Shown: piece after piece, positions 37,621 to 51,067 of the stretch
Layout of the letters: every line of letters begins with the position of its first letter
Numbering within the stretch: the stretch's first letter is position 1
Assembly (NCBI GenBank): GCA_035533075.1
Contig: DATLUO010000092.1
Location: 1-53,425, forward strand
From: Pirellulales bacterium
Lineage (GTDB): Bacteria; Planctomycetota; Planctomycetia; Pirellulales; JAICIG01
Direction: 5' to 3'
Length of the DNA stretch: 53,425 bases
Program-made: the position numbers and the translations under genes
Notes under the pieces: generated by a model
Databases searched by the model: none
Told to the model about the DNA's origin: nothing
The model's input: only the letters and a program-made list of their open reading frames with translations

Positions 37621-40600
37621 ATGAGATCCCGCACGCATCGCACCCTGTTTGTCGCGTTGGCTTGGTTGAGCAGCATTTCGGCGGCGTCGATTTCGGCCGC
37701 CGATAAGCCCGAAAAGAAGCCCGCCGAACGACCACAAATCGAGCCGGCCGAGCCGACGGTGCCCGACAGCATCAGGGCATTGCTCGAAGACCGCAGATAC
37801 GCCGACGCCGTGGCGGCCATCGACAAGGCGGTGGGCGACAAAACAGCCGACCAGGAATGGCTGGCCTATCTCAAAGCCCGATCACTTTACCTGGCCGGCA
37901 GTTACGACGATTCGATCGCCGCCTACAAGGCCGCCGAGACAAGGTTCCCCGAGAGCCGCTGGCAACGTCGATACCGGTTTGGCCGCGCGCTGGCGCTGGC
38001 CCGCAAAGGCGATTTCCAGGCCGCAGAGCAGATTTATCGTGCCGAGGCCGAGCACCTCTTGTCGGCCGATCGCAAGGAGGAACTGGCCGACATCTATCTG
38101 GAGTTCGCCGACGGCTACTTCAAGCCGGCCGACGAACAGCAGCAGCCCAACTATGCCAAGGCCCTCGAGTTCTACAACAAGGCGCTCGAAGTCGGCCCGA
38201 AGCCCGAAAAACGCGAAGAGATCGAGCTGCGTGTGGCACGCTGCTACCAGGAGTTGGGCAACCATCAGGAGGCTGCCAACCGTTACACGCAGTTCACCAA
38301 AGACCATCCGGATAGCGCCCTCGACCTGGAAGCCCGTTTTCGCCTGGGCGAGGTGCAGTTGACGATGGGCCAACGTGAGGAAGCCCGTCGCACCTGGCAG
38401 GACCTGCTGGCCACCTACGCCGACAACAACAGCGAGCGGATTGCCGAGGCGACGTTCCGGCTTTCGGAGACCTACGGCTTGCCCGCTCCCTCGTCGACGG
38501 AAGACCTGGAACTGGGCGTCGCCTCGTTGGAGACGTTCCTGAAAGAATTCCCCGAGCACAAGCTGGCCGGGCAAGCCTATCTGCGCATCGCCAATGCCTA
38601 CGTCCATTGCGGACGATACGAAGACGCGGTGAAGAGGCTCAAAAAGTTCTTGGGCGACGAGCGGTCCGCCGGTCGCGAAGAGCTGGCCGATGCCCGCGTG
38701 CTATTGGGCCGTTCGTATCAGCTTCAGAAGAAGTTCGACGAGGCGCTGGCCACTTGGCGCGACTACCTGGCCAAGCATCCGGCCCATTCGGCCTGGAGCG
38801 ACGTGCAACGTTCGATCATCGACACCGAGTTTCTCCAAGGCGCCGAGGCGGCCAAAGCCAAACGCTACGATCAGGCCCGCAAGCTGTGGCAAGAGTTCCT
38901 GGTCAAATACCCGCTCGATCCGCGTGCCCCGCGCATCCTGCTCGAATTCGGCCGCATGAAGTTTTTGGAAGAAGATTACGACGCGGCCATCGCCGAGTGG
39001 CGGCGCGTCGTCTCGAAGTATCCCAACACGAATGAATCGTCGCAGGCCCAATACCTGGTGGCCCTCACGCTGGAAGAGAAGCAGGGCAAGCTCGAAGAGG
39101 CCCTCAAGGAATATCGGAAAGTGACGTGGGGCAACTACGCCGCCAAGGCCCAGCAGCGCATCAGCCGACTCACCGCCAAGGAAATGACGGTCGCCACCGA
39201 GCGCGTGTTCCGCTCGAACGAGACGCCCAAGATCAAGCTCACCACCCGCAACATCGAGTCGGTCACGGTTCGGGCCTACACGGTCGATCTGGAAACCTAC
39301 TTTCGCAAGATGCACCTGGCCGGCGGCGTGGAAGGTCTCGACATCGCCCTGATCGACCCCGACAAGACGTTCGAGTTCGATGTGCCGAAATATGCCCAGT
39401 ATCAGCAGCTTGCCAGCGAAGTGGAGATCCCCTTCGAGTTCCGCGTGGCCGGCGTGCCGGGCGGCGTGATGGCCGTCACCGTCAGCGGCAAGACGCTGGA
39501 GGCGACGACGCTGGTCATCCAGAGCGACCTCGACGTGATCGTCAAAAGCTCGCGCGACGAAATCTTTGTGTTTGCCCAGAACATGCGGACCGGCAAGCCG
39601 TGGCCCAAGGTGCGGCTGTTGATTTCCAACGGCCAGCAGGTGTTTGCCGAAGGCGAGGCGGGCGACGATGGCGTGTTCCAGAAATCGTACCAAGAACTGA
39701 AGTCGGCCGGCGACGTGCGGGTGTTCTCGGTGGCTGATTTAAGCGTGGCCTCGAACGTTGTCGGCCTGAACGGCGTCGGCGTCTCCAGCGGTCTCACCGC
39801 GCGCGGCTACATCTATCCCGATCGCCCCGCTTATCGCGCCGGGCAGCTCGTTCACGTTCGTGGCGTCGTTCGCAACGTGGCCGACGACCGTTTTACGATC
39901 GACGAAGGCAAGAAGTTTCATTTTGAGGTTTACGACAGCCGCAGCCGCCTCATTCGGCAAGACGAAGTGACGCTGGGCAAATTCGGCAGCTTCCATGCGC
40001 ACTTTGTGTTGCCCGACAGCAGCGTGGTCGGCGACTATCGCATCCAGGTTTATGACGACGCCGGGCAAAACTACCAGGGCGCCTTCCGCGTTCACGAATA
40101 TCAGCTCGAACCGGTGCGTCTGGCGGTCGATACCGATCGAAAAGTTTTTTATCGAGGCGAAGAGATCGTCGGTAAGATCACTGCCAAATTCTATTACGGC
40201 GCCCCGCTGGCCGACCGCGAGATTCGCTATCAGCTTGCCGGCGGCCGAGTCTACACCGGCACCACCGACGAAAAGGGCGAGCTGGAGTTCAAGCTGCCGA
40301 CGCGCGAATACCGCGAGTCGCAAACGCTGCCGCTGGTGGTCACGCTGGCCGAGCGGAACCTGCGAACGAGCGTCAACTTCTATCTCGCCACGCAGGGCTT
40401 TTCGATCGGCCTGAGCACCGTCCGCAAGGTGTTCGTCTCCGGTGAGACGTTTGAGGTTTCCCTCAACACCCGCGATGCCGAGGGCAAACCGATCAGTGAA
40501 GAACTAACTTTGAACGTACTCAAACGGACGACCGTCGAGGGCAAAGTCGGCGAAACCGAAGCCGAAGAGCACGAAATCGCGACCGACAAGGACGGCAAAG

Positions 40601-43600
40601 GCCGGCTTACGCTGCGACTAGAAGAAGGCGGCCAGTATGCGCTGCGCGCGGAAGGAACCGATCGTTTCGACAACCCGATTTCGGGCACGTCGCTGGTGCA
40701 GATTTCCGATGACAGCGACCGCGTTCGTCTGCGCATCCTGGCGGACCGTCACACATACAAAGTCGGCGATCGCGCCACCGTGCAGTTGCACTGGCGCGAA
40801 GCCCCGGCTTTGGCGCTGGTGACCTTCCAGGGCGGCAAGATTTTGGATTACCAGCTCGTGCAGCTTAAGACCGGCGCCAACGAGCTGGCGATCCCCATGA
40901 CGACGCTCTTGGCGCCGAATTTCGATCTGGCCGTCGCCGTGATGACCGACGCCCGTGAGGCGAAGGAAAAAGACGACGACCCGGAAAACAACTCTGTAGG
41001 GAACGGGGCGCCCCCTGGGCCCCGTGGCGTTCCGCGGCGCTTCCACGAGGCATCCAGCCCCTTCACGGTCGAGCGCGAGCTACGATTGACGATCGCAACC
41101 AAGCCGAAGCAAGGCGACGCTGCCCGGCCGGGCGAAGAGGTTGAGGTAACGATCACGGCCAGCGATCCGCAAGGCAAGCCGGTCGAAGCCGAGCTGAGCC
41201 TGGCGATGATCGAGCAGGCGCTCTGGGAGATGTTCGGTTCGAACGTCGCTGCCATCGCCGACTTCTTCCGCGGCCAACCGCGCGCCTCAGCCGTACGCAC
41301 CGCGTCCAGCGTGGCATTCTCCTACTATCCCGCAACGCAGCCCATCAACCCGCAGTTGTTGGCGGAAAAGGATCGGAGGGAAGTTGAGGCGATGGAGGAA
41401 GAGCGACGCAAGGCGTTGAGTGAACTGACTTCAAGTCAAACGGCCGAGTTGCAACGGCAACAGATCGCGGCGGAGCCACAAGCGAGAGCGAAAGTCAATC
41501 GCGAACTGTCCTTGCGCAACGGCAACATGGACGACGCTCTAGTGGCAGAAGAACTCGGCGAGGTCGAGAGCGTGCTAGGGACCAACGTTTATCCAGTTGG
41601 CGATCTTGTCGGCACGATCGAACATGATGCAAAAACTCAGAGCCGCGCGAGTGGCGACGTCTTTTACGATCAGATTCGCCGTCCAAGGGGATCGATGGTG
41701 GTTGAGGAATCAGCGATTCCATTCGATGATCTTTCAGTTAGTGGCGTGCCGGCCGCCAATGGCCCCGTGGCTGGCGGATTAGGCGGTTTCGCAGGACGGA
41801 GGTCTGGCCTGGCCAGCCGCCAGGCCGGTGCAGAGGCATACGGTTTTGGGGTTAACGACGGAAAGGTAAAGGCTCGACCGTTTTTTGAGCAAGACGAAGC
41901 TAAGTCCGAAGCGGCCAAGTCGGAGTTGGCGGATCGCAATCAGATGTATTTCGCTCCGGCCGATGCCAGCGCGCTGATGATGGGTCGGCTGGCGAAACCG
42001 GAATCCAACCCCACGGTCCTCTTGGCCGATGGAAGCCAGAAAACCTGGCAACTCGGCTTGAACTTCACGATACCCGACGGACAAAAGCTACGTGATGCGG
42101 CTGAAAAAAATGCGAAGCTGCTTGAGGAGGCTGAGGCGATGAGAACAGCGGGGGCCGTAATACTGCCGCCGCAAGCATCCCAAGAAACGGCATACTGGAA
42201 TCCCGCAATCGTCACCGACAAGGACGGTAAGGCCACCGTTACGATCACATTGCCAGAGCGGACAACGGCGTGGAAGCTGCTGGCGAAGGGGATCACCACC
42301 GAGACACTGGCTGGGGAAGCCGAGAGCGAGCTGGTGGTTAAGAAGGAGCTGTTCGGCGAGCTGAAGCTGCCGCTGGCCTTCACCGACGGCGATGAGGCCG
42401 AGATTCTCACGACCATGCACAACGACGCGGTCGAGAAGGGGAAGATCGAGGTCACGCTTAAGACGACCATTGGTGGCAAGGCGGTCGAAGAGAAGAAGAC
42501 GATCGAAGCGAGCAAGGGAATGCAGGAGGTGCCGTTCAGCGTGAAGTTGGAACTGCCCCGAGAGGAAGAACGGCAGAAGGCAGAAGGCAAAGGGCAGAAA
42601 GAGGAAGCAAGCACAGACGCTGTTGAAATCGAGTTGACGATCGTCGCCGGGGAGAAGCGCGATGTGGTGCGGCGGACGGTGCCGATTCGGCCTTATGGGA
42701 TGCCGGTGTTCGCAACGGCCAGCGGCTCGGCCACCAGCGATACCACGGCCTTCGTCGAAGCGCCCGAAGGCATGACGCTCGAATCGCCCAAGCTGGAGGT
42801 GATCGTCGGCCCGACCGTCGAGCAAAGCTTGCTCGACGCACTTCTAGCGCCGGCGCCGTTATGCCAGCTTGGTGCCTTGCGATTGGCTTCGGGCATCGAT
42901 ACCTCGACGAGCGACCTGATGGCGGCCATCGGTTTGCAGCGTCTCGTTGGCGCCACGCGGCAGGCCGGCACGCCGCAGGCCGAAGCGCTTGATGCCCGAG
43001 TGCGCTCGTCGTTGAGCTTGCTGGTTTCGTCGCAGAACGACGATGGCGGCTGGAGTTGGACCGGACGCGGCGGTGCCAGCAATCGCTACACGTCGGCGCG
43101 CGTTGTCTGGGCGCTCAGCCTCGGCAAAGCCGCCGGCTACAAAGTAGCCGACGACAACTTTGAGAAGGCCATCGGATACATTCAGAGCCAGGTGGCGACG
43201 ACGGCGGAGACGGATTATGACAGCAAATCGGTGCTGCTGGCCGCGCTCGCCTCGGCCGGCCGCGGCGACTTTACATTGGCCAACCGGCTCTATCGCAATC
43301 GGCCCGCGCTCTCGACCGGTGCGCTGGTCTACCTGGCGCTGGCCCTGGCCGAGATGGACCGGCAGCCAATGGCCCACGACCTGTTCGAGCTGCTCGCCAA
43401 GCGAAAGCTCGACGGCAGCGTCGAAGAACTCAACACACGGGCAGTGCTGGCCTGGAACGATTCGTCGGCCGAACTGCGGGCACTTTACCTGTTGGCCCTG
43501 GAAAAAGCCGAGCCGGAAAGCACCAAAATCAGGGACCACGTCGATTGGCTGATGGCCCATCGCACCGGGCATCGCTGGTCGCCCGACAAGGCGACCGGCC

Positions 43601-46116
43601 CCGCTATGTTGGCGCTGGGCCAGTGGTTCGCCAAAACGCGTTTCGACACCGAGCATTATCAGCTTACGCTGGTCGTCAACGGTTTTGAGGTGACGAAACT
43701 CGATGTGACGCCCGAGGCCAAGACGCAAACCGTTGCCATCCCGGCGGGCCTGCTCAAGAAAGACAAGCAGCGGATTCAGTTCCAGTTGGCCGGCCGCGGC
43801 CAATACACCTATCAGTGCTTGCTGAGCGGCTTCGTGCCGGCCGGCAAGCTCAAGAGCACCACTAAGAATTGGCTGGTCAAACGTTTCTACGAGCCGGCCC
43901 CGCGCGAGCTGGACGGGCAGACCATTCCCCGCGGGTTCGACGTGTTGCAAGGGGCTTTCACCACGTTCCGCAATCCGCTCACGCAGTTGCCCGTCGGCCA
44001 GCGCGGCCACGTCGAGCTCCATGTCTCGCGCATCAACTTGCGGGCAGACACGGCCGACGAAAAGGTGGAATACCTGGTCGTCAGCGAGCCGCTGCCGGCC
44101 GGTGTGACGGTGATCGAGCAATCGGTCACCGGCGCGTTCGAGCGGTTCGAGCTGACGCCCGGCGAGATCACGTTCTTCATCGGCAGTCAGAAGTGGCCCG
44201 GACCGATCCAGTTCGACGTCCACGGCTATCTGCCGGGCGAGTACCGCGCGGGGCCGACCGCCGTCCGCAACGCCTATCGGCCCGATCAGCTCGCCGTGGC
44301 CGACGCGCGGCAGCTCACGGTGCTGCCGCTGGGGCAAAAGAGCCAGGACGAGTATCGCCTCTCGCCGCGCGAGTTGTTCGAGTTCGGCAAGCGCTACTTC
44401 GAGAAACACGAGTGGCAGGCTGCGGCGGCGCATCTGACCGAGCTGATGAACAAGTGGAACTTGCAGCCGCAGTTCTATCAGGAGTCTGCCCGGATGCTGC
44501 TCGACGTTTATCTGGAGCTGGGCGTCGACGCCGAGATCGTCCGTTGGTTCGAGCTGATCAAGGAAAAGTGGCCCGACGTAGAGTTGCCGTTTGCGAAGAT
44601 CGTGCGGGTCGGCGCCGCTTATGACAAGATCGGCGAATATGAGCGGAGCTTTTTGGTGTTCCGGGCGACGATCGAAGGCAGCTTCTCGCGCGAAAGCAAC
44701 GTGGCCGGCTTCTTGGAGGGCCAGGGAGAATTTTTGCGGAGCGTGGCGGTGATGGGGCGGCTGCTGGCCGAGTATCCGCCGGAGCCCTACGCCGCGGCGG
44801 CCCAGTATGCCTTGGCCCAGCGCGTGTATGCCTATGCTCAGCAGGCGGCGGGCGACCAGAAGCTGCGCGACAAGAAGATCACGCGGGTCGATTTGATCGA
44901 GCACGCCGTCACCATGCTCGACGGCTTTTTGACGGCTTATCCCGAAGACCCGGCGGCCGACCAGGCGAGTTTTTCGCTGGCCAATGCGCTGTTGGAACTG
45001 AAGGCCTACGCCCGAGCGGTCGAACGCTGCCAGCGGTTCGCCGAGCGGTATTCGTCGAGCGACTATCTCGACAGTTTCTGGTACATCGTCGGCTACAGCT
45101 ACTTCGCCCTGGGCGAGCACGAAAGGGCGCTGGAGATGTGCCGCAAGGTGGCCGAAGCGAAGCACGTCGATCGCCAGACGGGCCGCGAGGAAGAAAGCCG
45201 CAACAAGTGGCAGGCGATCTACATTCTGGCCCAGGTCTACAACAGCCTGGGCAAAGCGGCCGAGGCGATCAAGGAGTATACTCGCGTGGAGGAGCGGTTC
45301 GCCGACGCTCGCCGGGCGATCGAGTATTTCACCCGCAAGGCGATCGAGCTGCCCGAGGTGAGCACGTTCGAGCCGGACGAAAAGGTTAAGGTCGATCTGA
45401 AGTTTCGCAACGTCGCCCGTTGCGACACGCGGGTCTACAAGATCGACCTGATGAAGTTCAGCTTGTTGAAGCGAAACCTGTCGCACATCACCGACATCAA
45501 CCTGGCCGGCATCCGCCCCTATCACGAGGCGGCGATCGAGCTGGGCGACGGCAAAGACTATCGCGATCGCACGCGGAAGCTGCCGTTGCCGCTGAAGGAC
45601 GAAGGGGCTTACCTGGTCGTCTGCCGCGGCGACGATCTGCACGCCAGCGGTCTGGTGCTGGTGACGCCGCTCAAGGTTGAGGTGCAGGAAGAGCCTTCAT
45701 CGGGCGAGGTGCGGACGACGGTGAAAGACGTGACGAAGGACCGCTACATCAACGAGGTCCACGTCAAGGTGATCGGTAGCCGCAACGCCGAGTTCATTTC
45801 GGGCGAAACCGACTTGCGGGGCGTGTTTGTGGCCAATGGCGTGCAAGGCACGGCCACGGTGATTGCCGAGGAAGGCGACAACCGCTACGCCTTCTTCCGC
45901 GGACACGCCGAGCTCGGCACACCTCCGCCGCCGGCAGCGACGCCAGCCGAGCAGCAGCCCGCCGGCGCGGCCGGCAAGCCAATGGCCAACGACAGCGAGC
46001 AGTTGCTGCGTCAGTTGCAGGAGAGCAACAGCATGATCCAGCAAATGCAGTGCGAGAACCTGAAGAACATTTATCAGCAGAACAAGCAAGGAGTGCAGTT
46101 GAAGGAGGCGTTTTAA
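37621..46116 (+). CDS. Giant TPR and alpha-2-macroglobulin-like secreted protein without thioester
   Basis: A 2,831-residue exported protein; GAGGAGGAG lies seven bases before the ATG and a signal peptide covers about residues 1-26. Residues ~50-520 are TPR/tetratricopeptide-like repeats. From ~525 macroglobulin (MG) domains follow (RVFRSNETPKIKLTTRN; MG2-type YIYPDRPAYRAGQLVHVRG near 725). A low-complexity bait-like region spans ~1240-1470, then the conserved A2M block ETAYWNPAIVTDKDGKATV near 1522. The thioester motif GCxEQ is absent from the expected place (~1744, APAPLCQLGA). A helical toroid (SSQNDDGGWSW) and MG10-like domain follow, then a second TPR block (~2255-2570) and another MG-like module (~2575-2760). 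A repeat-derived linker lies at ~1125 and ~1650. Likely an envelope protease trap or scaffold. Confidence 0.85.
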   Translation: MRSRTHRTLFVALAWLSSISAASISAADKPEKKPAERPQIEPAEPTVPDSIRALLEDRRYADAVAAIDKAVGDKTADQEWLAYLKARSLYLAGSYDDSIAAYKAAETRFPESRWQRRYRFGRALALARKGDFQAAEQIYRAEAEHLLSADRKEELADIYLEFADGYFKPADEQQQPNYAKALEFYNKALEVGPKPEKREEIELRVARCYQELGNHQEAANRYTQFTKDHPDSALDLEARFRLGEVQLTMGQREEARRTWQDLLATYADNNSERIAEATFRLSETYGLPAPSSTEDLELGVASLETFLKEFPEHKLAGQAYLRIANAYVHCGRYEDAVKRLKKFLGDERSAGREELADARVLLGRSYQLQKKFDEALATWRDYLAKHPAHSAWSDVQRSIIDTEFLQGAEAAKAKRYDQARKLWQEFLVKYPLDPRAPRILLEFGRMKFLEEDYDAAIAEWRRVVSKYPNTNESSQAQYLVALTLEEKQGKLEEALKEYRKVTWGNYAAKAQQRISRLTAKEMTVATERVFRSNETPKIKLTTRNIESVTVRAYTVDLETYFRKMHLAGGVEGLDIALIDPDKTFEFDVPKYAQYQQLASEVEIPFEFRVAGVPGGVMAVTVSGKTLEATTLVIQSDLDVIVKSSRDEIFVFAQNMRTGKPWPKVRLLISNGQQVFAEGEAGDDGVFQKSYQELKSAGDVRVFSVADLSVASNVVGLNGVGVSSGLTARGYIYPDRPAYRAGQLVHVRGVVRNVADDRFTIDEGKKFHFEVYDSRSRLIRQDEVTLGKFGSFHAHFVLPDSSVVGDYRIQVYDDAGQNYQGAFRVHEYQLEPVRLAVDTDRKVFYRGEEIVGKITAKFYYGAPLADREIRYQLAGGRVYTGTTDEKGELEFKLPTREYRESQTLPLVVTLAERNLRTSVNFYLATQGFSIGLSTVRKVFVSGETFEVSLNTRDAEGKPISEELTLNVLKRTTVEGKVGETEAEEHEIATDKDGKGRLTLRLEEGGQYALRAEGTDRFDNPISGTSLVQISDDSDRVRLRILADRHTYKVGDRATVQLHWREAPALALVTFQGGKILDYQLVQLKTGANELAIPMTTLLAPNFDLAVAVMTDAREAKEKDDDPENNSVGNGAPPGPRGVPRRFHEASSPFTVERELRLTIATKPKQGDAARPGEEVEVTITASDPQGKPVEAELSLAMIEQALWEMFGSNVAAIADFFRGQPRASAVRTASSVAFSYYPATQPINPQLLAEKDRREVEAMEEERRKALSELTSSQTAELQRQQIAAEPQARAKVNRELSLRNGNMDDALVAEELGEVESVLGTNVYPVGDLVGTIEHDAKTQSRASGDVFYDQIRRPRGSMVVEESAIPFDDLSVSGVPAANGPVAGGLGGFAGRRSGLASRQAGAEAYGFGVNDGKVKARPFFEQDEAKSEAAKSELADRNQMYFAPADASALMMGRLAKPESNPTVLLADGSQKTWQLGLNFTIPDGQKLRDAAEKNAKLLEEAEAMRTAGAVILPPQASQETAYWNPAIVTDKDGKATVTITLPERTTAWKLLAKGITTETLAGEAESELVVKKELFGELKLPLAFTDGDEAEILTTMHNDAVEKGKIEVTLKTTIGGKAVEEKKTIEASKGMQEVPFSVKLELPREEERQKAEGKGQKEEASTDAVEIELTIVAGEKRDVVRRTVPIRPYGMPVFATASGSATSDTTAFVEAPEGMTLESPKLEVIVGPTVEQSLLDALLAPAPLCQLGALRLASGIDTSTSDLMAAIGLQRLVGATRQAGTPQAEALDARVRSSLSLLVSSQNDDGGWSWTGRGGASNRYTSARVVWALSLGKAAGYKVADDNFEKAIGYIQSQVATTAETDYDSKSVLLAALASAGRGDFTLANRLYRNRPALSTGALVYLALALAEMDRQPMAHDLFELLAKRKLDGSVEELNTRAVLAWNDSSAELRALYLLALEKAEPESTKIRDHVDWLMAHRTGHRWSPDKATGPAMLALGQWFAKTRFDTEHYQLTLVVNGFEVTKLDVTPEAKTQTVAIPAGLLKKDKQRIQFQLAGRGQYTYQCLLSGFVPAGKLKSTTKNWLVKRFYEPAPRELDGQTIPRGFDVLQGAFTTFRNPLTQLPVGQRGHVELHVSRINLRADTADEKVEYLVVSEPLPAGVTVIEQSVTGAFERFELTPGEITFFIGSQKWPGPIQFDVHGYLPGEYRAGPTAVRNAYRPDQLAVADARQLTVLPLGQKSQDEYRLSPRELFEFGKRYFEKHEWQAAAAHLTELMNKWNLQPQFYQESARMLLDVYLELGVDAEIVRWFELIKEKWPDVELPFAKIVRVGAAYDKIGEYERSFLVFRATIEGSFSRESNVAGFLEGQGEFLRSVAVMGRLLAEYPPEPYAAAAQYALAQRVYAYAQQAAGDQKLRDKKITRVDLIEHAVTMLDGFLTAYPEDPAADQASFSLANALLELKAYARAVERCQRFAERYSSSDYLDSFWYIVGYSYFALGEHERALEMCRKVAEAKHVDRQTGREEESRNKWQAIYILAQVYNSLGKAAEAIKEYTRVEERFADARRAIEYFTRKAIELPEVSTFEPDEKVKVDLKFRNVARCDTRVYKIDLMKFSLLKRNLSHITDINLAGIRPYHEAAIELGDGKDYRDRTRKLPLPLKDEGAYLVVCRGDDLHASGLVLVTPLKVEVQEEPSSGEVRTTVKDVTKDRYINEVHVKVIGSRNAEFISGETDLRGVFVANGVQGTATVIAEEGDNRYAFFRGHAELGTPPPPAATPAEQQPAGAAGKPMANDSEQLLRQLQESNSMIQQMQCENLKNIYQQNKQGVQLKEAF
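40993..41036. repeat. REP-like palindrome inside the giant gene
   Basis: TCTGTAGGGAACGG and CCGTGGCGTTCCGC arms match the element at 18453-18484, here with an extra GGGGCGCCCC core. Read in frame it encodes a Gly/Pro/Arg linker (SVGNGAPPGPRGVPRR). Confidence 0.55.
42572..42599 (+). repeat. Heptanucleotide array (GGCAGAA) inside the giant gene
   Basis: Four 7-base units (GGCAGAA, GGCAGAA, GGCAAAG, GGCAGAA) encode RQKAEGKGQKEE. Four units are 28 bases, so the reading frame is kept only together with flanking bases. Confidence 0.8.
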
Positions 46117-46590: not shown

Positions 46591-47964
46591 CTATCGCTTG
46601 GGCGAAATCTGTCGACGATCGACGCCGGGCGCGGCGACGTCGGGCAGGTCGGCTTCGACGCCGGGCACCGCGCGGCCCGAGACGCCCGGCAAAGTTCGCT
46701 GCCCGACGCCCGGCACTCGCCGTCCGGAGATTCCCGGCAACGATTCCTCCGTCACCGAGGCACGAGGCTGCTCCGTAGCCCGCACTTGAGTCTCTGAATC
46801 GGCAGCGGCGGGAAGGTACAACGTGGCCACGCCGCCCGCGGGCGCGGCGTCGACCGTCGATTCGAACTTTTCGCGCATCACAGCGAGCTGCCGCAAGCCG
46901 TTGGCAGCTTGGGCTGCCTGGCGAAGTATCTCAGGACGAAGCCTGGCCGCGGAGGGCACCGCTTCGTTCGGCCGCGCCAGTGTCGGCCGCCGTTCAGCAT
47001 GCTCGCGGCGGGCCTGATAACGCTCCGCGAGACGCGCCGCCCAGTGGGCGTTCTTGGGCTGGTGCCGCCAACGCTCGTAGGCAAAGTCCGGCTCGGGACG
47101 CCCCGTGGCGTCCGGCTCGTACCAAGGTTTGATGTCGGCAGCGCCAGGCAGGACATCGAAATAGTCGCCGAAATAGAAGTGACCGTACACCGCGCCGACG
47201 AACAATGCCTCGCTCAAGTCGGCAAGGTTGATCGCCAACGCCGGCTTGGGCGAAACGTTCGATTGCGTGCCGGCGGCCATTGGCAGCAGCGCCAGCCCGC
47301 GACGCTCGATCGCGAAATCCCAATAGCCGGGCACGAATACGCTGCCTCGCGGGGTCCAGACCGAGTGCGATGGCATCCACACCCATCCCGCTTTGAACGG
47401 TGCCTGAAAGCCGCGCCGCCAAACGTATTTTTCTCCCTCGTAACTCCAATAACCGGGGACGGCAAAGCGATCGCCGGGGGGCGTCGGTGCGGGCGGTTCG
47501 TTTGCCGGCGGGGGCGGGGGCGGCAGGTATTGCAGCCGTGGCTGATTGCGCGGAAACCAGAAGCCGCGGACCCAGCGCCAACCCTGGTCTGCCACACTCC
47601 AATAGCCCGGCACCCAGCGCATGCCCGGCGGTGGGACGCGCCACACGCCGGGCACCCAAACCAGATCGCCCATCGCCGGCTCCCAGCCCCAGTAGCCGGG
47701 AATCCAAGCGGCCGCTGCGATACCGGGTTTCGTTGCCGGCGGCGTGTGGGCCAGCGGTGGAGGTGGCCGCCCGTCGAAGACCGTGCCCGGTGTTTCGGCG
47801 CCTGAGAGCGGTTGGGCGAACGCCTCGTGAATCGGGCCGCGGACCGGCACCGCTGCTTCTGAAGGCCGTCCCGCGGCTGAAACGGCTCTGGTTGTCGGCA
47901 CCACGGCCGTCATGAACATGAGCGCCGCCAGCCCTCTTAACGGCAATGTTGATTTCCTGTGCAT
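46591..47964 (-). CDS. Secreted YXWGXW/WxPGxW-repeat protein
   Basis: A 457-residue exported protein; start MHRKSTLPLRGLAALMF, signal peptide to about residue 31, AGGAT just upstream. Residues ~85-240 contain repeats of the WxPGxW kind: WIPGYWGW, WVPGVWRV, WVPGYWSV, WVRGFWFP, VPGYWSY, FVPGYWDF. Such YXWGXW repeats are typical of planctomycete envelope proteins. A Pro-rich loop (LPPPPPPAN) breaks the repeats. The C-terminus holds short repeats LPGISGRRVPGV / LPGVSGRAVPGV. Function unknown, presumably structural at the envelope. Confidence 0.82.
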   Translation of the reverse strand: MHRKSTLPLRGLAALMFMTAVVPTTRAVSAAGRPSEAAVPVRGPIHEAFAQPLSGAETPGTVFDGRPPPPLAHTPPATKPGIAAAAWIPGYWGWEPAMGDLVWVPGVWRVPPPGMRWVPGYWSVADQGWRWVRGFWFPRNQPRLQYLPPPPPPANEPPAPTPPGDRFAVPGYWSYEGEKYVWRRGFQAPFKAGWVWMPSHSVWTPRGSVFVPGYWDFAIERRGLALLPMAAGTQSNVSPKPALAINLADLSEALFVGAVYGHFYFGDYFDVLPGAADIKPWYEPDATGRPEPDFAYERWRHQPKNAHWAARLAERYQARREHAERRPTLARPNEAVPSAARLRPEILRQAAQAANGLRQLAVMREKFESTVDAAPAGGVATLYLPAAADSETQVRATEQPRASVTEESLPGISGRRVPGVGQRTLPGVSGRAVPGVEADLPDVAAPGVDRRQISPKR

Positions 47965-48890: not shown

Positions 48891-50375
48891 ATGATTTGCG
48901 TCAGTATCGGACGTGGGCGGCACCGGCACGTCATCGCCGAGCATAAGCACCTGGTCGAACAAGGCGCCCAGCTCGTCGAGTTGCGGCTCGACTACATCAA
49001 CGGCCAGATCAACCTGAAGCGCCTGCTTGTCGAACGGCCCGGTCCCGTCATCGTCACCATCCGCCGGCCTCAAGACGGGGGCAAGTACAGCGGCACCGAA
49101 CAGGAGCGCCAGGTGCTGCTGCGGACCGCCATCGCCGACGGCGTCGACTACGTCGACCTGGAGGAAGATGTCGCCGGGGCGATTCCGCGGTACGGCAAGA
49201 CCAAACGCATCGTCAGCCTGCACGACTTCCGCAAGACGCCCGACGACCTGGAAGCCATCCACGCTCGGCTGGCGAAGCTCGATCCCGACATCATCAAAAT
49301 CTCGACGCTGGCCAATCAACCGCACGACAATGTGCGGATGCTGCGGATGGTGAAGGAGAGCAAGGTGCCGACGGTGGGCATCTGCATGGGCGACATCGGC
49401 ACGCCGTCGCGGCTGCTGGTGGGGCGTTGCGGCGCGCCGTTCAGCTATGCCACGTTTCATCACGAGCGGACGCTCGCGCCGGGGCAGCTCAGCTTCCAGC
49501 AAATGAGGGAGATCTACGGCTACGACCAGATCACGGCCGAGACGGAGGTTTACGGGGTCATCGGCGACCCAATCGCCCAGAGCCTCAGCCCGATCATCCA
49601 CAACGCCGCTTTCCGCGAGCTTAAGCTCAACAAAGTTTACATTCCCTTCCGCATTCCGCGCGAAGACCTGAACAGCTTTCTGGACGACGTGCCCGAACTG
49701 GGCATCAAGGGCCTGAGCGTCACCATTCCGCACAAAGAGGCGGTGCTCAAGCGGGTGACGAAGATCGACGGCGCGGTGCGCGGCATCACGGCCGCCAACA
49801 CGCTGGTCTTCGAAGAAGAACAGCTCGCGGGCTATAACACCGACTATCGCGGCGCCATGGACTGCCTCACCGACGCGCTGACCAACGAACGCGGCGACGC
49901 CGACGTCACCAGCAAAGTGGCCCTGGTGCTGGGGGCGGGCGGGGCGGCCAAGGCCATCGCCTTCGGCCTGCAGCGGCGCGGGGCCGAAGTGGTCATCGCC
50001 AGCCGCACCCGCGAGCGGGCCGACAAGCTGGCCGGCGCGCTCAACTGCAAGGCCGTCGATTGGGGCACGCGGCACAACTTCTGGGTCGACCTGCTGGTCA
50101 ACTGCACGCCCGTCGGCATGCACCCGCACGTCGACGAATCGCCTTACGACAAGCACTACCTGAAACCGTCGATGATCGTGTTCGACACCGTTTACAATCC
50201 CGAAAGCACGCTGTTGGTCAAGGACGCACGGGCACGGAGCTGCACGGTCGTGACCGGCGTCGATATGTTCATCCGGCAGGCGGCCCTGCAATTCAAGCTG
50301 TTCACCGGCCAGGACGCCCCCGCCGAACTGATGCGTGAAAGGCTCAAACGGACGATCGGCCCGGCCAAGCAGTAG
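48891..50375 (+). CDS. aroDE: Fused type I 3-dehydroquinate dehydratase and shikimate dehydrogenase
   Basis: Catalyses two consecutive steps of aromatic amino acid synthesis: dehydroquinate to dehydroshikimate, then reduction to shikimate with NADPH. The 494-residue protein has the AroD half in residues 1-210, with Schiff-base Lys K136 (DIIKIS) and H111 (SLHDFRK). The AroE half (218-494) shows GDPIAQSLSPIIHNAAF, SVTIPHKE with K282, NTDYRG with D318 and the NADP site GAGGAAKA (348-354). This fusion is also known from plants and chlamydiae. The aroK gene follows, separated by two heptanucleotide arrays; the first of them starts inside the TAG stop. Confidence 0.95.
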   Translation: MICVSIGRGRHRHVIAEHKHLVEQGAQLVELRLDYINGQINLKRLLVERPGPVIVTIRRPQDGGKYSGTEQERQVLLRTAIADGVDYVDLEEDVAGAIPRYGKTKRIVSLHDFRKTPDDLEAIHARLAKLDPDIIKISTLANQPHDNVRMLRMVKESKVPTVGICMGDIGTPSRLLVGRCGAPFSYATFHHERTLAPGQLSFQQMREIYGYDQITAETEVYGVIGDPIAQSLSPIIHNAAFRELKLNKVYIPFRIPREDLNSFLDDVPELGIKGLSVTIPHKEAVLKRVTKIDGAVRGITAANTLVFEEEQLAGYNTDYRGAMDCLTDALTNERGDADVTSKVALVLGAGGAAKAIAFGLQRRGAEVVIASRTRERADKLAGALNCKAVDWGTRHNFWVDLLVNCTPVGMHPHVDESPYDKHYLKPSMIVFDTVYNPESTLLVKDARARSCTVVTGVDMFIRQAALQFKLFTGQDAPAELMRERLKRTIGPAKQ

Positions 50376-50471
50376 TGGTTAGTGGTTAGTGGTTAGTGGT
50401 TAGTGGTTAGTGGTTAGTGGTTAGTGGTTAGTGGTTAGTGGTTAGTGGTTAGTGGTTAGTGGTTAGTGGTT
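50374..50471 (+). repeat. Heptanucleotide array (AGTGGTT), fourteen perfect copies
   Basis: Fourteen identical AGTGGTT units in register, beginning with the last two bases of the aroDE TAG stop. The perfection of the copies points to recent expansion. Confidence 0.98.
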
Positions 50472-50483
50472 AGGGACGGCGAT

Positions 50484-50532
50484 CCCAAGACCCAAGACCA
50501 AAGACCCCAATCCAAAATCCAAAATCCAAAAT
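50484..50532 (+). repeat. Degenerate heptanucleotide array (CCCAAGA to CCAAAAT)
   Basis: Seven consecutive 7-base units: CCCAAGA twice, CCAAAGA, CCCCAAT, then CCAAAAT three times. It ends 19 bases before the aroK start. Confidence 0.85.
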
Positions 50533-50551
50533 TGCCTCCACCCCGTCCTGC

Positions 50552-51067
50552 ATGAAACTCGTTCTCATCGGCTATCGAGGCACTGGCAAGAGCACGGTTG
50601 CCCGGCATCTCGCCTTGGAACTGGGCTGCGATTGGGTCGACGCCGATGTAGAAATTGAATTGAAGGCGGGCAAGTCGATCGCCGCCCTCTTCACCGATGA
50701 CGGTGAGGGCCGTTTTCGCGACCTGGAAGAGGAAGTGCTGGCGGAACTGGTGTCGAGAGAGAACCTGGTCATTGCGGCCGGCGGCGGCGCCGTGTTGCGT
50801 GAGGCGAACCGGCGGCAGCTTGCCCGCTGCGACCGTGTCGTCTGGTTGCAAGCGTCGCCGGCGACGATTCTCAAGCGGACCGCGCTCGATGCCACGACGG
50901 CCGGCCGGCGACCGAAACTCACCACGGCCGGCGGCGAGGAGGAAGTCGTGCGCCTGTTGACCGAGCGCGGACCGCTTTACAAGCAGTGTGCCGACATGCA
51001 AATTGACACCGACGAAAAATCACCGGGCGAAATCGCCCAAGTAATCATCGAGCAGATTCATCTCTAA
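50552..51067 (+). CDS. aroK: Shikimate kinase
   Basis: Phosphorylates shikimate to shikimate 3-phosphate, the step following the aroDE fusion product. The 171-residue protein has the P-loop GYRGTGKST at residues 7-15, DADVEIE for Mg and shikimate binding (about 31-37), FRDLEEEVL and GGGAVLR (about 77-83). Lengths and motif spacing match the family. No Shine-Dalgarno is evident; its leader consists of heptanucleotide arrays. The stop is 11 bases before the prepilin peptidase gene, so the two may be co-transcribed. Confidence 0.93.
   Translation: MKLVLIGYRGTGKSTVARHLALELGCDWVDADVEIELKAGKSIAALFTDDGEGRFRDLEEEVLAELVSRENLVIAAGGGAVLREANRRQLARCDRVVWLQASPATILKRTALDATTAGRRPKLTTAGGEEEVVRLLTERGPLYKQCADMQIDTDEKSPGEIAQVIIEQIHL

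What the first reader, a model, noticed from the sequence alone, without database searches (positions are those of the whole stretch)
37621..46116. 2,831-residue TPR-macroglobulin-TPR-macroglobulin protein without thioester
Bacterial alpha-2-macroglobulins usually have about 1,500-1,900 residues and most carry a GCxEQ thioester. Here the A2M core is recognisable (ETAYWNP block) but the thioester site is absent, TPR arrays flank the core on both sides, and a second MG-like module with another beginning similar to the first (VSTFEPDEKVKVDLKFRN against RVFRSNETPKIKLTTRN) is added at the C-terminus. It may be a non-covalent protease trap or an envelope scaffold.
Basis: partly seen in the sequence, partly recalled or inferred. 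Interest (0 to 1): 0.6.

Follow-up and report, generated by a model that had tools for sequence, protein, structure and literature searches.

The report
Double-armed bacterial macroglobulin without thioester
The gene encodes a giant exported cousin of the protease-trapping alpha-2-macroglobulins, carrying the same helical-repeat arm at both ends; its kind is shared by many Planctomycetota and Verrucomicrobiota, and the window's branch has lost the covalent hook and gained a conserved C-terminal tail.

Summary
ORF 37621-46116 (+) encodes 2,831 residues with a secretion signal: TPR array, alpha-2-macroglobulin (A2M) ring with bait-region and thioester-type (TED) domains, second TPR array, second MG pair. 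No C-x-E-Q thioester exists. The MG2-MG3 pair is duplicated (BLASTP E 4e-6; profile-profile E 4e-13), adding an arm to each end of an otherwise standard bacterial A2M. AlphaFold2 models of both halves are confident (pLDDT 88-90). Residues 1640-2236 match native, not activated, A2M/complement (Z about 29, rmsd 3-4 A); 519-1215 match Salmonella A2M.

This is not a one-off. The C-terminal module occurs in 39/197 genomes of the order, 108/392 of the phylum, and in Verrucomicrobiota, nearly always in an ORF of about 2,600-3,000 aa where the contig permits. Some distant members keep PYGCxEQT; window-type members form one thioester-less clade. Every complete member of that clade has a C-terminal tail with a GVxxxxA ending; no thioester member does.

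Most likely it is an exported non-covalent protease snap-trap, working like Pseudomonas MagD (Type II A2M) but with another architecture and without the mag partners tested. Protease binding is inferred. Its domain order also resembles the megadalton CAGE complex; that link was untestable here.

The parts
37621..37701 (+). N-terminal secretion signal (residues 1-27, MRSRTHRTLFVALAWLSSISAASISAA); no lipobox
   Evidence: read directly in the translation; homologues have hydrophobic N-termini; cleavage site inferred by eye
37738..39174 (+). TPR array 1 (residues 40-518), in the place of MG1 of E. coli/Salmonella A2M
   Evidence: Pfam TPR families; all-helical repeat in the model, pLDDT mostly >90; SaA2M aligns only from its residue 157
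39175..39522 (+). MG2-type domain of arm 1 (residues 519-634)
   Evidence: model and SaA2M alignment; homologous to residues 2574-2680
39523..39795 (+). MG3-type domain of arm 1 (residues 635-725), Pfam bMG3
39802..41265 (+). MG4 to MG8 incl. bait-region domain A2M_BRD (residues 728-1215)
   Evidence: Pfam MG2 and A2M_BRD; residues 519-1215 align with SaA2M 157-909
41266..42180 (+). bait-position segment (residues 1216-1520); conservation 0.21-0.30 per 50 residues in its middle against about 0.6 in the flanks
   Evidence: identity as a bait is inferred from its place between A2M_BRD and A2M
42187..42459 (+). A2M (PF00207) domain with the ETAYWNP block (residues 1523-1613)
42817..43635 (+). TED-type alpha/alpha domain (residues 1733-2005), flanked by CUB strands 1667-1712 and 2013-2092
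   Evidence: model m83506dc70935; Z about 29 against native A2M, A2ML1, C5, TEP1
42823..42915 (+). place of the missing thioester (residues 1735-1765); no C-x-E-Q
   Evidence: alignments
43918..44328 (+). MG10 / CTMG (receptor-binding type) domain (residues 2100-2236)
   Evidence: bMG10 found by Pfam in the homologue L134
44353..45339 (+). TPR array 2 (residues 2245-2573)
44581..44592 (+). isolated short strand in TPR 2 (residues 2321-2324, within V-E-L-P-F, 'LxIPF' motif), typical of members with a tail; proposed partner of the tail strand
   Evidence: pairing inferred, model coordinates could not be inspected
45340..45660 (+). MG2-type domain of arm 2 (residues 2574-2680), copy of 519-634
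45667..45915 (+). MG3-type domain of arm 2 (residues 2683-2765)
   Evidence: bMG3 hit in 15 of 30 members tested at E<=1, best 5e-4, and in L134
45916..46116 (+). C-terminal tail (residues 2766-2831 and stop): P/Q-rich linker, long helix, GVxxxxA[FYK] end
   Evidence: helix 2791-2819 and strand 2824-2826 modelled at pLDDT 78-92 for most of the helix and strand

Best explanation
The protein is an exported, thioester-less A2M that most likely works as a non-covalent protease snap-trap in the periplasm-like space of a planctomycete. Shown from sequence or models: a signal-like N-terminus; the complete A2M core (MG2-MG10, bait-region domain, CUB, TED) predicted in the native, pre-activation arrangement; a divergent segment where the bait lies; loss of the thioester; the same TPR-MG2-MG3 arm at each end; and a conserved tail in the thioester-less clade. 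Inferred: a protease cuts the long bait; the core collapses around it as in E. coli A2M; the two TPR arms extend the walls of the enclosure or bind partner proteins; and the tail, perhaps by adding its GVx strand to the LxIPF strand of TPR 2 in the same or a neighbouring subunit, holds the assembly closed so that no covalent bond is needed.
For: Domains: (YfhM/SaA2M best, E about 1e-34 for both halves). Native-like fold: residues 1640-2236 superpose on native A2M, A2ML1, TEP1 and C5 at 3.2-4.0 A over about 510 residues, but on activated forms at 10-15 A. Bait position: conserved flanks, unconserved middle; 113-317 aa in thioester-less and 107-255 aa in thioester members. Thioester members with the same architecture. 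One thioester-less clade (support 0.98) and the tail present in every complete member of it, absent from all 14 thioester members and from L140, which lost its thioester separately. Clade-specific fixed residues are concentrated in arm 2 (44 of 526 positions against 14 of 740 in the core). Precedent: MagD lacks the thioester and traps a protease (PMC5764988).
Against: No protease-binding evidence exists. In monomeric A2ML1 and in Salmonella A2M the thioester is needed for trapping (PMC9156758 abstract; PMC5764988), so its loss could equally mean that trapping was given up. The bait identity rests on position and divergence; such a segment could be a simple disordered linker. No neighbour gene is conserved in more than 5 of the loci compared, so context gives no support. 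The tail-strand pairing is read from secondary structure and conservation, not from coordinates.
Confidence: 0.5

Rival explanations
1. It is a bacterial member or sister of the CAGE family: a homotetrameric hollow container or chaperone of about 1 MDa, in which bait cleavage plays no part.
For: CAGE1 as described in PMC12485934 has the same order of elements: helical N-terminal domains; a run of MG-like sandwiches of which two hit A2M; a split beta domain (1215-1244 and 1565-1598) around a helical domain, as CUB surrounds TED; a beta domain; helical domains 13-14, of which 13 resembles domain 1; and about 200 aa of beta structure at the end. Its bacterial homologues are most common in Planctomycetota and Verrucomicrobiota and have signal peptides, the phyla found here.
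Against: The paper found no Pfam domain in CAGE1 and no PDB match for helical domains 1 and 13, whereas the window protein has clear TPR and A2M hits. No CAGE sequence was available for comparison, and none appears in the PDB listings.
Confidence: 0.25
2. It is an envelope scaffold: the TPR arms bind partner proteins at the envelope, and the A2M core is a spacer that no longer traps anything.
For: The thioester is lost; two long TPR arrays with generic similarity to YbgF/CpoB and BamD TPRs; fixed residues specific to the clade lie in TPR 2 and the terminal MG pair.
Against: Thioester members of the same architecture exist, so the arms are not tied to loss of trapping; the bait-region domain and divergent bait-position segment persist throughout the clade, and the TED fold persists in the window protein; YbgF/BamD hits are the usual cross-hits of TPR repeats.
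Confidence: 0.2
3. It is an ordinary Type II bacterial A2M of the MagD/YfaS lineage with TPR decoration.
For: No C-x-E-Q, bait-region domain retained, Gram-negative envelope protein, as defined for Type II (PMC5764988).
Against: Mag-operon type partners DUF1175 and DUF2138, which flank yfaS in E. coli, are absent from the whole genome. In the tree, YfaS falls outside the thioester-less clade (0.986), next to a thioester member, on a long branch. YfaS and MagD are about 1,500 aa and have no TPR arms.
Confidence: 0.1

Closest known systems
Type I bacterial A2M (E. coli YfhM/ECAM, PDB 4rtd, 5a42; Salmonella Sa-A2M, 4u48)
   Same: MG ring, bait-region domain, CUB, TED and C-terminal MG in the same order; best sequence and fold matches
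   Different: No thioester; no lipobox; MG1 replaced by a TPR array; a second TPR-MG2-MG3 arm and a tail after MG10; 2,831 aa against 1,653; no pbpC-like gene among the neighbours scanned
Type II bacterial A2M (Pseudomonas MagD, E. coli YfaS)
   Same: No C-x-E-Q, bait region retained, exported (PMC5764988)
   Different: MagD is about 1,500 aa, has no TPR arms and works with mag-operon partners; DUF1175 and DUF2138 are absent from this genome; not grouped in the tree
Thioester-bearing double-armed A2M of other Planctomycetota (e.g. L134, L136, L144, L148)
   Same: Same TPR-A2M-TPR-MG2-MG3 architecture, about 2,500-2,900 aa
   Different: They keep PYGCxEQT and end right after the last MG3 domain, without the tail
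CAGE complex (Tetrahymena CAGE1, Dictyostelium AbpF; PMC12485934)
   Same: Same order of helical and beta blocks, A2M-like sandwiches, bacterial homologues mainly in Planctomycetota and Verrucomicrobiota with signal peptides
   Different: CAGE1 is 2,216 aa without Pfam hits; homology not testable here

Membership tests
alpha-2-macroglobulin superfamily | MG domains, A2M_BRD, PF00207 A2M and TED in A2M order | tested here: met
Type I bacterial A2M | C-x-E-Q thioester in TED | tested here: not met
   no C-x-E-Q in the chain; aligned site replaced
Type II bacterial A2M (MagD/YfaS) | no C-x-E-Q but bait region retained | tested here: inconclusive
   no thioester; A2M_BRD present and a divergent segment in bait position, but bait cleavage is not testable
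Type II bacterial A2M (MagD/YfaS) | mag-type operon partners (DUF1175, DUF2138) | tested here: not met
   no match in the whole genome; controls ring in E. coli; none among the neighbours scanned
Type II bacterial A2M (MagD/YfaS) | common descent with YfaS | tested here: inconclusive
   YfaS fragment falls outside the clade on a long branch
A2M protease trap (function) | bait cleavage, conformational collapse, retained protease | not testable with these tools
   needs purified protein
CAGE family | order alpha - MG sandwiches - split beta around alpha - beta - alpha - beta | tested here: inconclusive
   order matches the published domain list; no CAGE model to superpose
CAGE family | sequence homology with CAGE1/AbpF | not testable with these tools
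   no CAGE sequence in the collections; none seen in PDB profile listings, of which only the best 60 are shown
CAGE family | homotetrameric cage | not testable with these tools
   needs cryo-EM or size exclusion
YbgF/CpoB or BamD (TPR envelope proteins) | whole-protein orthology to tol-pal YbgF or BamD | tested here: not met
   NCBIfam scores pass only by summing repeats over a 2,831-aa protein that is otherwise A2M

The most novel reading that the evidence does not exclude
CAGE, an ancient megadalton container of unknown function in protists and bacteria, is a thioester-less double-armed A2M, and the window's family is its bacterial counterpart. If so, CAGE descends from a thioester protease trap: Planctomycetota still hold the covalent relatives, the thioester was lost while a tail latch was gained, and the window protein forms a hollow tetramer of about 1.25 MDa.
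Probability: 0.3. Interest if true: 0.85.

Novelty: new variant of a known kind. Interest (0 to 1): 0.62.

Why it matters
Bacterial A2Ms are known as proteins of about 1,500-1,900 aa in two types. This is a third, much larger architecture with duplicated arms, spread over two phyla, and it includes thioester and thioester-less versions on one tree. The exchange of thioester for tail offers a testable answer to how a macroglobulin might hold a protease without a covalent bond, and the domain order offers a concrete evolutionary origin for the CAGE complex, whose function is unknown.

Tried and rejected
Scan of genome contigs with the single protein gave no relative; an alignment of the C-terminal module gave 197. 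Order-wide search with the whole protein failed on the server and was replaced by the C-terminal module. Conserved operon: rejected, the neighbours tested recur in at most 5 of the ortholog loci. A first regex for the thioester missed PYGCTEQT in the shorter 2,050-aa A2Ms; corrected: those are thioester proteins. CAGE did not appear among the PDB matches shown, but the library may not hold it, so this excludes nothing. YbgF and BamD orthology rejected as TPR cross-hits. Cys1748 as part of a hidden thioester rejected: no E-Q follows and the Cys is not conserved. A phylum search centred on a Verrucomicrobiota locus was not accepted. Literature searches found no description of a TPR-A2M-TPR protein in the held library; the library lacks most subscription papers. 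Fisher tests ignore shared ancestry: loss of the thioester and gain of the tail each look like one event.

Full report
Check of the observation. The reading frame 37621-46116 on the plus strand is open for 2,831 codons and begins with a signal-like hydrophobic stretch without a lipobox. Pfam places TPRs in about 50-520 and again in about 2250-2570, bMG3 at 635-694, MG2 at 728-824, A2M_BRD at 1037-1201 and A2M at 1523-1613. No C-x-E-Q occurs anywhere. In other genomes a search with the C-terminal module also hits the N-terminal module of the same ORF.

Anatomy. Two AlphaFold2 models built on alignments of 63 and 65 homologues are confident: residues 1640-2831, mean pLDDT 88.4, pTM 0.64, and residues 31-1215, mean pLDDT 89.7, pTM 0.76. 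Residues 1640-2236 superpose on the corresponding part of native human A2M, A2ML1, TEP1 and C5 with Z 28-30 at 3.2-4.0 A over about 510 residues, while activated forms fit only at 10-15 A. Residues 519-1215 align with Salmonella A2M 157-909 (Z 19.6; the overall rmsd of 15 A probably reflects domain angles). The part of Salmonella A2M before residue 157, its MG1, has no counterpart; the TPR array stands there. The protein is therefore [TPR-MG2-MG3]-MG4 to MG10 with BRD, CUB and TED-[TPR-MG2'-MG3']-tail. The closest solved A2M sequences are E. coli YfhM and Salmonella A2M, E about 1e-34 for each half.

Family. Orthologs of 36-68% identity and, where complete, 2,763-2,974 aa occur through the order. 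With the C-terminal module as query, 39 of 197 genomes of the order and 108 of 392 of the phylum have a match, nearly always in an ORF of about 2,600-3,000 aa where the contig is long enough. Named genomes include Blastopirellula marina DSM 3645, Rhodopirellula, Stieleria, Planctomicrobium and, in Verrucomicrobiota, Akkermansiaceae and Rubritalea. The window's genome has no other A2M. Related genomes often also carry a shorter thioester-bearing A2M of about 2,050 aa without TPR arms. The genes next to the window protein are not conserved next to its orthologs.

Thioester and tail. Fourteen double-armed members from other lineages of the phylum carry PYGCxEQT or close variants (PYDCVEQT in L150) at the aligned site. 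In a tree of 88 sequences built without the thioester columns, all window-type members fall in one thioester-less clade (support 0.98), and a single further loss, L140, lies among the thioester members. Every member of the thioester-less clade whose C-terminus is present (67; L069 and L073 are cut by contig ends) has a tail after the last MG3 domain: usually a P/Q-rich linker, a helix with N and Q positions, and an ending of the type GVxxxxA[FYK] or a close variant. None of the 14 thioester members, nor L140, has it. Loss of one and gain of the other thus coincide on the tree, but as single events they prove no causal tie. Positions fixed in the tailed clade but not in the others are concentrated in arm 2 (44 of 526 against 14 of 740 in the stretch from MG9 to MG10). 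One such site, LxIPF at 2321-2324, is an isolated short strand in the model, as is the GVQ of the tail at 2824-2826. I infer that they pair; coordinates could not be inspected.

Bait. Between A2M_BRD and the A2M domain lie 305 residues (1216-1520) whose middle has conservation of 0.21-0.30, against about 0.6 on either side. Lengths range from 113 to 317 aa in thioester-less members and from 107 to 255 in thioester members. This is where the bait lies in A2Ms (PMC4498604). That the segment is a bait is an inference from place and divergence.

How it most likely works. Established for relatives: cleavage of the bait lets the freed chain compete with TED for the C-terminal MG domain, and the molecule closes on the protease (PMC4498604); MagD traps a protease without a thioester (PMC5764988). 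For the window protein I infer the same trigger, non-covalent retention, extra walls or partner sites from the two TPR arms, and a latch made by the tail. Confidence 0.5. The main alternatives are a CAGE-type container and a scaffold.

CAGE. The published domain list of CAGE1 (PMC12485934) follows the window protein block by block, including a split beta domain around a helical one, as CUB surrounds TED, and a terminal helical-plus-beta unit of which helical domain 13 resembles domain 1. Bacterial CAGE proteins are commonest in the same two phyla and carry signal peptides. Against it, the authors found no Pfam domain in CAGE1 and no PDB match for helical domains 1 and 13. No CAGE sequence or structure was available here, so membership is untested.

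Verdict. It is a new variant of a known kind; it fails the Type I definition and lacks the tested partners of the mag-type Type II system, but works, most probably, like a Type II trap.

Noticed in passing
window 46591-47964 (-): The convergent neighbour encodes a 457-aa exported-looking protein with WxxGxW/'WVPGxW' repeats (PF12779), followed by 'LPGVSGRxVPGV' repeats near its C-terminus.
   Followed up: no
window 48891-51067 (+): A fused type I 3-dehydroquinase / shikimate dehydrogenase (494 aa) is followed by shikimate kinase: a small shikimate-pathway cluster.
   Followed up: no
L200 and L203 (contig JAAYAY010000016.1): Two to three copies or pieces of the double-armed A2M lie close together (ORFs of 2,950, 1,190 and 1,816 aa), suggesting tandem duplication with decay or a frameshift.
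   Followed up: no
G025:C434:6803-7144 and G025:C193:8451-8792: Two short frames (114 aa) match only the last 113 residues of the protein at 47-49% identity, on separate contigs; contig-end fragments or free-standing C-terminal pieces.
   Followed up: no
L134 residues 1327-1363: In this thioester member a TPR-like helical pair is predicted inside the bait-position segment; L136 looks similar by eye.
   Followed up: no
L140: Member on the thioester side of the tree that has lost the motif (RGGGLETS in place of PYGCxEQT) but has no tail: an independent loss.
   Followed up: partly
L153, L182 (JABMRB01) and L226 (JAIPIM01): Contigs labelled Nealsonbacteria and Paceibacterota carry the family with high similarity to Planctomycetota or Verrucomicrobiota members; probably mis-binned contigs rather than transfers.
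   Followed up: no
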